DNA of 45,342 bases from an uncultured Roseburia sp. (GTDB lineage Bacteria; Bacillota; Clostridia; Lachnospirales; Lachnospiraceae), in contig CANDCP010000020.1 in NCBI GenBank assembly GCA_947383215.1, forward strand, positions 1-45,342. The letters are read 5' to 3'. The position numbers and the translations under genes were made by a program. The stretch's first letter is position 1. Each line of letters opens with the position of its first letter. Below the pieces are notes generated by a model that made no database searches, was not told where the DNA came from, and was given only the letters and a program-made list of their open reading frames with translations. This document shows, one piece after another, positions 14,467 through 17,695 of the stretch.

Positions 14467-15258
14467 TCATGTTCTCTCATTAAATTCTACGATATCCCTC
14501 CGGAAGCGTTTTGGAATGTTCTGTTGCTGCAGGCGGGGATTTTTTCGGGCGTCGATCGCGATGCTTTCAAAAAACGCGCACCAGAGTCTGCGGAAGGTTT
14601 GTTCATTCTGAGAATATTGTGTTATTATATTCTGGTTCAGTGAAGAAGCGTCTGCGATCAGATAATTTTTGCCGGCTTTGTGGACGACGGCAAGTCTGCG
14701 GATCTCATCGTATATTAAAAAATTTTCCAACGGCAGGCGGTCCGTAAAATGTTCTCCGAGAACCGGCAGCACGTTGTTTTTCGGATGAATTGCGGCGAAT
14801 AGTACGCCGTTTTCAAGCTCACAGAAGCGCAGAAATCCAAGGAGATGGTGAGATTCTGCTTCCGTGGCGCGGCTTAATTCAAAAACGCGGTGGACGTAAG
14901 GCTCGCCCAGCGCTTCCAAAACCCTGGAGCCGTTTTTCATCGCGAGTCCCAGGACAATGGTGCGGTAAACGCAGTCGGCTTTATCGGGACCGCCTTTGCG
15001 TGTCGTAAGTTCATTGGCGAGGATCGCCTGACAGATCAGATAATGAACTTCTTCACCGAGGCGGTTTTTTAATGTAGCCGCTACTTTTTCGCTCTTTTGG
15101 CTGTCGGGGGCAACCGCAATATATTCCTGAAAGAGCTCGTAGTTTTCGGGCGGGTGTGAGATCAGGCGTACATTTTGGTGTCCATGCCCGCTTGCCCAGG
15201 CGTCGTAGACGCCTGTGAAAATACCGTCAATACTGTTTTCACATATAAAAGTGTACAT
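14467..15258 (-). CDS. DUF4130-type putative DNA repair protein (TIGR03915-like)
   Basis: The 263-residue protein starts MYTFICENSIDGIFTGVYDAW, the typical opening of the DUF4130/TIGR03915 group. It ends in a region containing WCAFFESIAIDARKNPRLQQQNIPKRFR, also typical. Family members are uncharacterised, but some are fused to a uracil-DNA-glycosylase-like domain, and they travel with a radical SAM partner. That partner lies 7 bases upstream here. This one has no glycosylase domain. It is translated from GTGAGG followed by ATG at 15258. It probably works with the radical SAM protein on damaged or modified DNA; the reaction is unknown. No clear terminator separates it from convergent tatD. Confidence 0.82.
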   Translation of the reverse strand: MYTFICENSIDGIFTGVYDAWASGHGHQNVRLISHPPENYELFQEYIAVAPDSQKSEKVAATLKNRLGEEVHYLICQAILANELTTRKGGPDKADCVYRTIVLGLAMKNGSRVLEALGEPYVHRVFELSRATEAESHHLLGFLRFCELENGVLFAAIHPKNNVLPVLGEHFTDRLPLENFLIYDEIRRLAVVHKAGKNYLIADASSLNQNIITQYSQNEQTFRRLWCAFFESIAIDARKNPRLQQQNIPKRFRRDIVEFNERT

Positions 15259-15265
15259 AAGAACC

Positions 15266-16600
15266 TCACAATAGAGAACTGCATGCGTTTGCGTTTATTC
15301 CAAAGTCGGCGAGATGTTCGGCGTCGAACAGAGAGAGCTGTTCATAGCCGCTGTTTTGAAGCTCCTTTGGGATCTGGGTTTTGTCGCGCATCAGATTCTG
15401 ACAGATGTAGTTTTCGTCCAGTTTCGTGTGGTACATCATTTTTCCGGAACAGGTGATAAAATACAGGGCGCGTTTCAGAACGACGCCGATTTTTTTCAGG
15501 TCGGTAAAGTCCAGGCGGTTCATGCGTCTCGCTTTGACAATACGTCTGGCCGATTTTGCGCCGATGCCGGGCACGCGCAGCAGCGTCGTATAATCCGCGC
15601 GGTTGATTTCAACCGGAAAGTATTCCAGATGGCGCAGCGCCCAATCGCATTTGGGGTCTAAAAAGACGTTAAAGTCCGGACGTTCTTCGCAGAGCAGCTC
15701 GTCCGCCCGAAAATGGTAATAGCGCAAAAGCCAGTCCGCCTGATAAAGCCGATGTTCCCGCAAAAGCGGAGGGCCGCCGGGCAATGCGGGGAGCAGCCGG
15801 TTGTGAGTGACGTTGATAAAGGCGGAATAAAAGACACGTTTTAGTTCAAAGTTTTGATAGAGGCTTTCCGCAACCTTTATGACCTGATAATCCGTCTCCG
15901 GCGTCGCGCCAATAATCATCTGTGTGCTCTGGCCGGCAGGAACAAACCGGGGAGCCTGCCGGTAAAGCGCAACGTCGTATCGGTTTTGCGTGATGCCGGA
16001 CTGAATCATTCGCATCGGTTTGAGGATCGCCGCGCGGGATTTGTTCGGGGCAAGCGCCCGAAGGCTTTGGGCGGTCGGCAGCTCCATATTAATGCTCATG
16101 CGGTCGGCAAGGAAGCCTGTTTTTTCTATGAGAAGCGGGTCGGCGCCCGGAATCGCTTTTACATGAATATATCCGTTAAAATGGTGAATTTCGCGCAGCT
16201 TGCGGATCGTCTCATAGATCAGCTCCATAGTGTGATTGGGGCTTATTAAAATGCCGGAGCTTAGAAATAACCCTTCAATATAATTTCTGCGGTAAAATTC
16301 CATTGTAAGCGTGCAGATTTCATCCGGTGTGAAGGAAGCGCGCGCGGCATCTGTATTGCAGTTGTTCTGGCAGTAAGCGCAGCGAAAGATACACTCGTTT
16401 GTAAAAAGGATTTTAAGCAGGGAAATACATCTCCCGTCGGCAGAAAACGTGTGGCAGATGCCGGGTGCGAGCGTATTGCCCATACCTCTGCCGTTGCCGC
16501 TTCGGTCGATACCGCTTGAAGTACAGGCGACATCATATTTTGCGGCGTCTGAAAGAATCTTTAGTTTCTCCGTCAGGGACAGATTTTCGGTTATATACAT
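15266..16600 (-). CDS. Radical SAM putative DNA modification/repair protein (TIGR03916-like)
   Basis: The 444-residue protein carries the radical SAM cluster motif CIFRCAYC (C70, C74, C77), followed by a TIM-barrel-like segment. A helix-hairpin-helix (LLRVPGIGAKSARRIVKAR, around residue 350) suggests DNA binding. This domain order fits the TIGR03916 family, described as linked to uracil-DNA glycosylase-like proteins. The enzyme would use SAM and a 4Fe-4S cluster to make a radical on a DNA base or adduct; the substrate is unknown. AAGGAG precedes the ATG. The partner gene at 15258 begins 7 bases after its stop. The promoter is flanked by two LexA-type boxes (see 16732 and 16792), so damage induction is likely. 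Confidence 0.88.
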   Translation of the reverse strand: MYITENLSLTEKLKILSDAAKYDVACTSSGIDRSGNGRGMGNTLAPGICHTFSADGRCISLLKILFTNECIFRCAYCQNNCNTDAARASFTPDEICTLTMEFYRRNYIEGLFLSSGILISPNHTMELIYETIRKLREIHHFNGYIHVKAIPGADPLLIEKTGFLADRMSINMELPTAQSLRALAPNKSRAAILKPMRMIQSGITQNRYDVALYRQAPRFVPAGQSTQMIIGATPETDYQVIKVAESLYQNFELKRVFYSAFINVTHNRLLPALPGGPPLLREHRLYQADWLLRYYHFRADELLCEERPDFNVFLDPKCDWALRHLEYFPVEINRADYTTLLRVPGIGAKSARRIVKARRMNRLDFTDLKKIGVVLKRALYFITCSGKMMYHTKLDENYICQNLMRDKTQIPKELQNSGYEQLSLFDAEHLADFGINANACSSLL

Positions 16601-16679
16601 AGGAACTCCTTTTAAACCGGCGCCGTTGACCGGGGAGGCGTCTCAAACAGAAACGCGCCGGGATAAGAAGATAAAGTAC

Positions 16680-16708
16680 TTTTCACCGGCAGATTTATCT
16701 GTTATGAT
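16680..16708 (+). promoter_or_regulatory. Possible ksgA promoter
   Basis: TTTTCA (16680-16685) and TATGAT (16703-16708) are 17 bases apart on the plus strand. If used, the first LexA-type box lies about 20 bases into the transcript. The -35 is weak. Confidence 0.4.
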
Positions 16709-16731
16709 AATAACATAGTGGCAAGGAAATA

Positions 16732-16745
16732 AGAACGTTTGTTCT
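16732..16745. promoter_or_regulatory. LexA (SOS) box 1
   Basis: AGAAC-GTTT-GTTCT is a perfect 5+5 palindrome containing GAAC-N4-GTTC, the core of the Firmicute LexA/DinR operator. It matches GAACRNRYGTTY at 11 of 12 positions. It lies just downstream of the minus-strand -10 (16755-16760), at about +3 to +16 of the repair-pair transcript, where bound repressor would block initiation. Confidence 0.75.
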
Positions 16746-16754
16746 GATAAGCAT

Positions 16755-16783
16755 ATTATACGACAGCGCAGAAAAAAATGCAA
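16755..16783 (-). promoter_or_regulatory. Promoter of the radical SAM/DUF4130 repair pair
   Basis: On the minus strand TTGCAT (16778-16783) and TATAAT (16755-16760) are separated by exactly 17 bases. It lies between two LexA-type boxes. The leader to the start at 16600 is about 150 nt. Confidence 0.75.
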
Positions 16784-16791
16784 GAGAAAAT

Positions 16792-16805
16792 AGAACAGAT
16801 GTTTG
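16792..16805. promoter_or_regulatory. LexA (SOS) box 2
   Basis: AGAAC-AGAT-GTTTG matches the Firmicute consensus core GAACRNRYGTTY at all 12 positions, though its dyad symmetry is less perfect than box 1. It lies 8 bases upstream of the minus-strand -35 and 60 bp centre to centre from box 1. Confidence 0.6.
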
Positions 16806-16831: not shown

Positions 16832-17695
16832 ATGGCGACACTGGCAATTCCGGCGAATACGATTGCCGTTTTACAGAAGTATAAGTTTCATTTTCAGAAA
16901 AGGTTTGGGCAGAATTTCCTGATTGATCCGCATGTGCTTGAAAAAATTATTGATGCGGCGGGGGTGACGGATGAAGATTTTGTGCTGGAGATCGGACCGG
17001 GAATCGGGACTATGACCCAATATCTGTGCGAATCGGCGCGCCATGTGACCGCGGTGGAGATTGACCGGAATTTGATTCCGATTTTAGAGGATACGTTAAA
17101 AGAATATGAAAATGTGGACGTGGTAAATGAGGATATTTTAAAGCTGGATCTTGCGGCTTTTGTGAAAGAAAGAAACGCGGGGCAGCCGATACGGGTTGTG
17201 GCAAACCTTCCATATTATATTACAACTCCGATTATAATGGGTCTTTTTGAGAGCCACGCGCCGCTTAAAAGTATTACGGTTATGGTACAGAGAGAGGTTG
17301 CCGACCGGATGCAGGCAAATCCGGGGACAAAGGATTACGGCGCGCTGTCTCTTGCGATCCGGTATTATGCCAGACCGGAGATTGCCGCAAATGTACCGCC
17401 GAATTGTTTTATGCCGCGCCCGAAGGTGGGAAGCGCGGTAATTCATCTTGTGCGCCATGAAAAGCCGCCTGTTTGGGTGGAGGATGAGGCGCAGATGTTC
17501 GGCATCATACGGGCCTCCTTTAACCAGCGGAGGAAAACGCTCGCAAACGGATTGAGCAATTCGCCGCAGATACATTTCGGAAAAGAAACGATTTTGGAGG
17601 GCATACGGGAGCTTGGCGTTCCGGTCACGGTCAGAGGAGAAGAGCTGACGCTGGAACAGTTTGCGAGGCTTAGCAATATTCTGGGGTCAAAATGA
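16832..17695 (+). CDS. ksgA: 16S rRNA dimethyladenosine transferase
   Basis: The 287-residue enzyme dimethylates two adjacent adenines near the 3' end of 16S rRNA during small-subunit assembly, using SAM. Motifs are GQNFL at residues 26-30, the SAM-binding VLEIGPGIGTMT at 51-62, and the catalytic NLPYY segment near 122. A C-terminal helical domain carries SFNQRRKTLANGL. The ATG at 16832 with AGAGGC upstream gives the normal N-terminus. A longer frame from 16778 would add 18 residues unlike the family and would overlap the divergent promoter. In many Firmicutes ksgA follows tatD and rnmV; here the divergent repair pair lies between. Confidence 0.96.
   Translation: MATLAIPANTIAVLQKYKFHFQKRFGQNFLIDPHVLEKIIDAAGVTDEDFVLEIGPGIGTMTQYLCESARHVTAVEIDRNLIPILEDTLKEYENVDVVNEDILKLDLAAFVKERNAGQPIRVVANLPYYITTPIIMGLFESHAPLKSITVMVQREVADRMQANPGTKDYGALSLAIRYYARPEIAANVPPNCFMPRPKVGSAVIHLVRHEKPPVWVEDEAQMFGIIRASFNQRRKTLANGLSNSPQIHFGKETILEGIRELGVPVTVRGEELTLEQFARLSNILGSK

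What the first reader, a model, noticed from the sequence alone, without database searches (positions are those of the whole stretch)
14467..16805. DNA-repair pair (radical SAM + DUF4130) with two LexA-type boxes at its promoter
Two LexA-type operators flank a consensus minus-strand promoter (TTGCAT-17-TATAAT). Box 1 (16732-16745) is a perfect palindrome overlapping the expected transcription start. Box 2 (16792-16805) lies just upstream of the -35, 60 bp away. The genes downstream are a radical SAM protein with a helix-hairpin-helix and its DUF4130 partner, families linked to uracil-DNA-glycosylase-like proteins but with no known reaction. SOS control would be direct support for a damage-response role.
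Basis: partly seen in the sequence, partly recalled or inferred. Interest (0 to 1): 0.78.

Follow-up and report, generated by a model that had tools for sequence, protein, structure and literature searches.

The report
SOS-controlled radical-SAM DNA-repair gene pair
A two-gene unit of unknown chemistry appears to be switched on by the bacterial DNA-damage alarm in this bacterium and in most of its relatives that were examined, and in some relatives the unit seems to carry its own version of the alarm switch, which ties these genes to repairing damaged DNA.

Summary
Confirmed. Both boxes, the TTGCAT-17-TATAAT promoter and the pair TIGR03916 radical SAM/HHH + TIGR03915/DUF4130 are present. The boxes go with the pair, not with divergent rsmA. 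Firmicutes-type LexA boxes lie upstream of rSAM in 161 of 197 same-phylum loci at a 1% per-region false-positive rate, and in 66 of 80 named loci against 2 of 424 other upstream regions. Proteobacterial loci fetched carry their own LexA boxes: alpha 12 of 12, beta 2 of 2. SOS control is already in print for C. acetobutylicum (PMC3828012) and, as a uracil-DNA-glycosylase operon, for Bacteroidetes, citing Verrucomicrobia and Alphaproteobacteria (PMC8565304). New here: 80 pair-bearing same-phylum genomes have no UdgX over cut-off, so the conserved SOS core is rSAM + DUF4130. In 8 loci (Gemmiger, Faecalibacterium, Ruthenibacterium, Subdoligranulum and two unnamed), 7 without strict boxes, a LexA-like HTH-S24 repressor gene precedes rSAM. 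A different palindrome near it recurs before recA, uvrB, rmuC and a Y-family polymerase in some of these genomes: apparently a replacement LexA in the same operon.

The parts
16732..16745 (.). LexA box 1 (AGAACGTTTGTTCT), just downstream of the -10
   Evidence: GAAC and GTT columns invariant in the window and 5 close relatives; matrix score 17.6, threshold 10.1
16792..16805 (.). LexA box 2 (AGAACAGATGTTTG), upstream of the -35
   Evidence: matrix score 16.8; 60-bp spacing lies in one of two frequent spacing ranges
16778..16783 (-). -35 TTGCAT
16755..16760 (-). -10 TATAAT
15266..16600 (-). radical SAM protein with C-terminal helix-hairpin-helix, TIGR03916 (678.6 bits, cut-off 343.5)
16370..16393 (-). 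CxxxCxxC radical-SAM cluster motif (C70, C74, C77)
   Evidence: invariant in alignments A1 (15 sequences) and A3 (51 sequences); cluster function inferred
15491..15613 (-). helix-hairpin-helix motif (HHH_3)
14467..15258 (-). partner protein TIGR03915/DUF4130 (213.4 bits, cut-off 112.25), no UDG domain
16835..17695 (+). divergent neighbour rsmA (ksgA), not part of the unit
   Evidence: a ksgA match within the about 1.5-kb flanks in only 2 of 66 same-family loci

Best explanation
The pair is a core SOS unit. LexA bound to box 1 (just past the -10) and box 2 (above the -35) shuts the promoter; RecA filaments on damaged DNA trigger LexA self-cleavage, and both proteins are then made. Shown by sequence: promoter, boxes, gene pair and conservation of the boxes. 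Inferred: binding, induction and function. I think the two proteins act together on a damaged base in DNA: the HHH region of the rSAM protein holds DNA and its [4Fe-4S]/SAM centre starts radical chemistry, most likely direct reversal or chemical editing of a lesion (about 0.35 for that chemistry), with DUF4130 as the lesion-handling or protein-partner subunit. UdgX, fused to DUF4130 in Proteobacteria, would be an add-on that captures uracil/abasic sites, not the essential part.
For: Strict boxes in 61 of 66 same-family upstream regions (window included) against a mean of 1.7 of 66 in shuffles. Matrix hits in 161 of 197 same-phylum loci (training family 65 of 65, order 35 of 46, phylum 61 of 86). 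66 of 80 named loci against 2 of 424 upstream regions of other genes, one of those two being lexA itself. Footprint of box 1. Alpha LexA box in 12 of 12 and beta box in 2 of 2 proteobacterial loci fetched. LexA over cut-off in 37 of 37 tested box-bearing genomes and in 33 of 43 without a strict box (p=0.0014, but see against). S24 LexA-like repressor gene upstream of rSAM in 8 loci. UdgX over cut-off in 0 of 80 pair-bearing same-phylum genomes. In-silico and array support in C. acetobutylicum (PMC3828012, passages).
Against: No expression, binding or biochemical data. 36 of 197 loci have no site over threshold, although several carry near-consensus sites, and 33 of 43 tested genomes without a strict box still have a LexA over cut-off. 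Of the 10 without it, 8 are under 90% complete, so LexA may simply be missing from the assembly. Gemmatirosa, Phocaeicola and Acinetobacter loci show none of the boxes looked for. The main text of a 2025 Caulobacter SOS paper has no hit for radical SAM, uracil or UdgX. The chemistry is untested and both structure predictions did not finish. C26, C49 and C58 are lost in the divergent Gemmatirosa homologue.
Confidence: 0.9

Rival explanations
1. The boxes regulate the divergent rsmA (ksgA) gene and the pair is only a neighbour.
For: Both genes share the intergenic region; box 2 ends about 30 bp before the rsmA start.
Against: Boxes accompany the rSAM gene where no ksgA match is near: ksgA in 2 of 66 same-family loci within about 1.5 kb, strict boxes in 61 of 66 regions including the window. 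The promoter faces the pair.
Confidence: 0.03
2. The operon is a uracil-DNA-glycosylase base-excision system, as described for Bacteroidetes and other phyla.
For: In the annotated alpha- and betaproteobacterial loci with a partner shown, that partner is a UdgX family protein, and the one scanned is a DUF4130-UdgX fusion. PMC8565304 describes COG1573-COG4277 that way.
Against: UdgX over cut-off in 0 of 80 pair-bearing same-phylum genomes; of the 28 that are own, same-genus, same-family or same-order only 1 has even a below-cut-off UDG-like hit. The Acinetobacter partner also lacks UDG. Below-cut-off hits, probably ordinary family-4 UDGs encoded elsewhere, exist in 35 of 80 and could still cooperate.
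Confidence: 0.15
3. The pair modifies DNA or another substrate, as a defence or regulatory mark, rather than repairing damage; SOS control is for other reasons such as phage attack.
For: Reaction unknown; the family name is 'putative DNA modification/repair'.
Against: SOS-type wiring in several lineages and the association with UdgX and with LexA-like genes fit repair better. Not tested directly.
Confidence: 0.2
4. The box matches are chance.
For: The window alone has no excess of the one-mismatch motif.
Against: 66 of 80 against 2 of 424 control upstream regions; Fisher p about 1e-65 if loci were independent, which they are not.
Confidence: 0.005

Closest known systems
CAC3343-CAC3344 of Clostridium acetobutylicum (PMC3828012, 2013; passages)
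   Different: One species, prediction only; that CAC3344 is the DUF4130 partner was not checked here; no UDG-less core argument, no cross-family test
COG1573-COG4277 SOS operon of Bacteroidetes, with reports cited for Verrucomicrobia and Alphaproteobacteria (PMC8565304; passages)
   Same: Two-gene SOS operon with an HHH/radical-SAM gene (that COG4277 is this rSAM family is recalled)
   Different: Partner is a uracil-DNA glycosylase; here it is DUF4130 alone and the operator is GAAC-N4-GTTY
UdgX (UDG that cross-links to abasic DNA; PMC10359453, passages)
   Same: Fused C-terminal to DUF4130 next to the rSAM gene in Proteobacteria
   Different: No match over cut-off in 80 pair-bearing same-phylum genomes
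Spore photoproduct lyase SplB
   Same: Radical-SAM protein of DNA repair; [quoted passage not shown]
   Different: No SPL model among the matches of the window protein; here a two-gene unit with HHH and DUF4130
HdiR of Lactococcus and the non-canonical LexA of Bacteroidetes (PMC8565304, passages)
   Same: HTH + S24 repressor controlling SOS genes in place of, or beside, LexA, as proposed here for the Gemmiger/Faecalibacterium group
   Different: Here the repressor gene lies upstream of rSAM, the lineage differs, and the candidate operator is ACAAC-N5-GTTGT

Membership tests
Firmicutes LexA regulon | GAAC-N4-GTTY operator at the promoter | tested here: met
Firmicutes LexA regulon | Operator conserved upstream of orthologues | tested here: met
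Firmicutes LexA regulon | LexA present, own lexA and recA with the same motif class | tested here: met
Firmicutes LexA regulon | LexA binding and induction by DNA damage | not testable with these tools
   needs gel shift and transcript measurement
TIGR03916 rSAM_link_UDG | Score over curated cut-off, CxxxCxxC, HHH | tested here: met
TIGR03915/DUF4130 | Score over curated cut-off | tested here: met
UDG-based base-excision system (COG1573-COG4277) | UDG/UdgX domain in the partner | tested here: not met
   TIGR03914 over cut-off in 0 of 80 genomes, G000 among them
Spore photoproduct lyase | Match to SPL family model | tested here: not met
   none among hits at E <= 0.001
LexA-replacing HTH-S24 repressor (relatives only, not the window) | HTH + S24 domains with cleavage site and Ser/Lys residues | tested here: met
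   domains in the 2 repressors scanned, L161 and L224; A-G, Ser and Lys columns shared by 7 repressors and the own LexA; that these residues do the cleavage is recalled
LexA-replacing HTH-S24 repressor (relatives only, not the window) | No canonical LexA in the genome | tested here: inconclusive
   6 of 7 genomes have no match over cut-off; G674 has a 110.8-bit match that passes only with its neighbours; G131 is 77% complete, and completeness of G703-G707 is not told
LexA-replacing HTH-S24 repressor (relatives only, not the window) | Own operator in front of SOS genes | tested here: inconclusive
   18 exact sites in 7 genomes, no more than the 18 of the reversed control; clear SOS targets in G707 and G705, G703 recA site lies in a hairpin, no recA site in G704, G706, G131

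The most novel reading that the evidence does not exclude
It uses its own ACAAC-N5-GTTGT operator and, at least in Gemmiger and Faecalibacterium, commands recA, uvrB, a type II topoisomerase, rmuC and a Y-family polymerase. The pair would then be so central to the damage response that it travels with the master switch itself. (Lowered from 0.65 to 0.6 after noting that genome completeness limits the LexA-absence test.)
Probability: 0.6. Interest if true: 0.72.

Novelty: new variant of a known kind. Interest (0 to 1): 0.62.

Why it matters
The radical-SAM/DUF4130 pair is common (rSAM over cut-off in 67 of 120 sampled genomes of this family) and I found no known reaction for it. That its SOS wiring persists across LexA operator classes, and without the uracil glycosylase that named it, moves the search for a substrate from uracil to the lesions that induce SOS, and fixes the minimal unit to purify. 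The apparent LexA replacement in Faecalibacterium relatives would give these gut bacteria a SOS regulator that I did not find described.

Tried and rejected
Chance and rsmA regulation: rejected. By my reading of the ORFs most lay in coding sequence and only a few at promoters. Solved structures: nothing near for DUF4130; for rSAM only a ComEA-related and a radical-SAM fragment. Phage collection: 10 records, 8 unannotated human-fecal 'Bacteriophage sp.' contigs and 2 Acinetobacter entries; not used as evidence. The structure jobs were still unfinished at their last polls (for DUF4130, for rSAM), so no fold search was made.

Papers: PMC3828012, PMC3765255, PMC4234289, PMC8565304, PMC12700426 and PMC10359453 were seen as passages; PMC10776899 gave no passages for my terms, start of abstract seen in a listing. 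Erill 2016 (Verrucomicrobia) is not held; it and da Rocha 2008 (Caulobacter) were seen only as cited. Statements on what is in print rest on searches only; the last listed 12 of 84 papers and none of those 12 has the word Faecalibacterium.

Rows dropped and limits: one search examined 200 loci; L088, L202 and L203 gave no usable upstream, so n=197 (window not counted). One of the 86 'phylum' rows, L204, is a divergent paralogue from an order genome (strict hit, matrix miss). The matrix was trained on family loci, so 65 of 65 there is not independent. Some named loci and G-handle loci are the same genomes (for example L306 and G348), so 197 and 80 must not be added; L313 is named as an Endomicrobium, so the 80 are not all Bacillota. 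controls are ORFs of 120 aa or more at least 700 bp from the rSAM start. The LexA and UdgX tests used 80 pair-bearing genomes each, picked by me; 'without a strict box' means no RAACN4GTTY, and some of those 43 pass the matrix. The 12 alpha and 2 beta loci were picked by me from 40 listed of 158 plasmid records; several are related. recA upstream was read in 6 of 7 genomes (L397 gave no output).
Full report
What is there. On the minus strand, 16600-15266 encodes a radical-SAM protein with a helix-hairpin-helix (TIGR03916, 678.6 bits) and 15258-14467 its partner (TIGR03915/DUF4130, 213.4 bits). The promoter TTGCAT-17-TATAAT lies at 16783-16755, box 1 at 16732-16745 and box 2 at 16792-16805. The divergent neighbour is rsmA (ksgA); on the other side a convergent TatD-type nuclease gene.

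Is it more than chance? The window as a whole has no excess of one-mismatch GAACN4GTTC (12 against a mean of 17), so the case rests on position and conservation. In the family sample 67 of 120 genomes carry the rSAM over cut-off; I read 66 loci, 65 with a usable upstream, plus the window. Strict RAACN4GTTY within 300 bp upstream occurs in 61 of these 66 regions, against a mean of 1.7 in 100 shuffles and 1 of 66 inside the gene. Over 197 same-phylum loci strict sites occur in 154 (family 60 of 65, order 33 of 46, phylum 61 of 86). A matrix trained on the family sites, at a threshold that 1% of shuffled regions reach, finds 161 of 197 (65 of 65, 35 of 46, 61 of 86). In 80 named genome contigs, among them Paenibacillus, Desulfosporosinus, Heliobacterium, Enterococcus, Blautia and Roseburia, strict sites occur in 57 of 80 and matrix hits in 66 of 80, against 2 of 424 upstream regions of other genes in the same loci. 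In an alignment of the promoters of the window and five close relatives, the GAAC and GTT of box 1 are among the few invariant columns.

Architecture. 71 intervals between neighbouring boxes were measured: 24 fall in 24-32 bp and 23 in 54-61 bp, with 11 in the wider 33-53 range between. The window's 60 bp is in the second class. Box 1 just past the -10 and box 2 above the -35 would let one or two LexA dimers block polymerase; cooperative binding is inference.

Not rsmA. A ksgA match lies within about 1.5 kb in only 2 of the 66 same-family loci, and in 3 of the 80 named ones, yet the boxes stay with the pair.

LexA link. LexA over the curated cut-off is present in 37 of 37 tested box-bearing genomes and in 33 of 43 tested without a strict box (p=0.0014). 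This test is weak: 8 of the 10 genomes without LexA are under 90% complete. The own recA and lexA promoters carry the same motif class. Loci without a strict box often have near-consensus sites. Against my reading, most such genomes do have LexA, so the wiring is not universal.

Other operator classes. On alphaproteobacterial replicons the direct-repeat box GAACN7GAAC (GTTC-N7-GTTC in PMC8565304) lies within 300 bp upstream of rSAM in 12 of 12 loci fetched, and in none of the 1.1-kb CDS stretches examined in each. Two Caballeronia loci carry CTGTATAAAYATACAG, the CTGT-N8-ACAG form of E. coli. Gemmatirosa, Phocaeicola and Acinetobacter loci had none of the motifs searched; Acinetobacter is reported to lack LexA (abstract in a listing). 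So in the loci read, the regulation follows each lineage's LexA.

UDG is not the core. In ten annotated alpha- and betaproteobacterial loci the gene after rSAM is called UdgX family, and the Leisingera one scores 312.6 bits for UdgX and 195.8 for TIGR03915. None of 80 pair-bearing same-phylum genomes has UdgX over cut-off; UDG-like hits below it occur in 35 of 80, and in 1 of the 28 that are own, same-genus, same-family or same-order. Residues R144, F171, R174, R238 and E258 of DUF4130 are kept in every sequence of an alignment that includes five proteobacterial fusions and the Acinetobacter partner. The rSAM protein keeps C70, C74 and C77 in A1 and A3, and C26, C49 and C58 in the 51 sequences of A3.

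A replacement LexA in the same operon. In loci without a box I found HTH_3 + Peptidase_S24 proteins directly upstream of rSAM. Related genes occur in 8 loci: L161, L224 (both unnamed), L276 (Gemmiger sp. An194), L281 and L294 (Ruthenibacterium), L283 (Faecalibacterium), L296 (Gemmiger formicilis) and L401 (Subdoligranulum variabile). In L276 and L401 a phosphoglycerate-mutase-like ORF (named by eye) lies between; L224 has no detected DUF4130. Seven have no strict LexA box before rSAM; L401 has one weak match, AAACACGTGTTT, 76 nt upstream. Seven of the repressors align with the own LexA at the Ala-Gly site and at the Ser and Lys positions. Six of the seven genomes tested have no LexA match over cut-off; the seventh, G674, has one that passes only with its neighbours in the frame; G131 is only 77% complete. 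A palindrome ACAAC-N5-GTTGT, or a one-base relative, sits near the start of the repressor gene in most of these loci. Exact copies number 18 in 7 genomes, no more than the reversed control (18), but their places are telling. Seven lie upstream of the repressor gene (in G703 with a transposase-like ORF between; in G704, G706 and G707 on the side of a divergent small ORF). In G707 others precede recA, uvrB, a type II topoisomerase B-like subunit (below the curated cut-offs), rmuC and a promoter next to prophage genes; in G705 one precedes a Y-family polymerase. Limits: the G703 recA copy lies in a terminator-like hairpin; G704, G706 and G131 recA have no copy; the G705 recA copy has one mismatch; the G705 repressor lacks an exact copy; four copies have no clear target. 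This kind of replacement is known from HdiR and from Bacteroidetes (PMC8565304, passages).

What is known. C. acetobutylicum CAC3343-CAC3344 was predicted LexA-controlled in 2013 (PMC3828012). PMC8565304 reports a COG1573-COG4277 operon in SOS networks of Bacteroidetes and cites Verrucomicrobia and Alphaproteobacteria for a UDG-based repair system. That COG4277 is this rSAM family is recalled. PMC3765255 calls DUF4130 a predicted mutagenesis-related enzyme tied to SplB-like rSAM proteins and UDGs. So SOS control as such is not new. The breadth in this phylum, the UDG-less core and the repressor-headed operon are what I add.

How it probably works. Damage, RecA filament, LexA self-cleavage, release of both boxes, synthesis of the pair, then radical-SAM-initiated chemistry on a damaged base with DUF4130 as partner. 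The first steps rest on the conserved operators and general SOS knowledge; the last step is inference, and rivals such as UDG-dependent excision or a modification role remain open.

Noticed in passing
L001 (own genome G000:C10): Own lexA is divergent from a small LysM-like ORF (named by eye), the lexA-yneA arrangement recalled from Bacillus, with several LexA-like boxes between.
   Followed up: partly
L046/L205 (G000:C30:37655-37666): Box CGAACATATGTTTG between a TTGACA and a TATAAT in the own genome; a SprT-like ORF lies about 700 bp further on and an HTH gene on the other strand.
   Followed up: partly
L039 (G000:C11:38175-38186): AGAACGAATGTTCT between a ParB-like ORF (by eye) and a small membrane-protein-like ORF in the own genome.
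   Followed up: no
L203, L204 (G227, G138): Second, divergent rSAM paralogues (about 340 bits) that match the family model only from about position 55 and have no detected DUF4130 nearby.
   Followed up: no
L306 / G348: Canonical lexA lies about 2.3 kb downstream of the DUF4130 gene in a Thermoanaerobacteraceae genome, again linking pair and SOS regulator.
   Followed up: partly
L281:371-649, L294:2783-3058, L401:1083-1403: Small membrane-protein-like ORFs divergent from the S24 repressor and sharing its operator region (no Pfam or NCBIfam hit for those scanned); possibly an SOS division inhibitor.
   Followed up: partly
L249:5445-6743: DUF4130 protein of 433 aa with a large internal insertion.
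   Followed up: partly
L242:5532-6337: Two extra ORFs between rSAM and DUF4130 (no Pfam hit for the first, the second not scanned).
   Followed up: partly
L234 (Acinetobacter baumannii record): Pair with a DUF4130 that lacks UDG; an inverted repeat AAACGA...TCGTTT lies upstream of rSAM in a genus reported to lack LexA.
   Followed up: no
L276: A transposase-like ORF (by eye) separates the ACAAC-N5-GTTGT promoter region from the repressor gene.
   Followed up: partly
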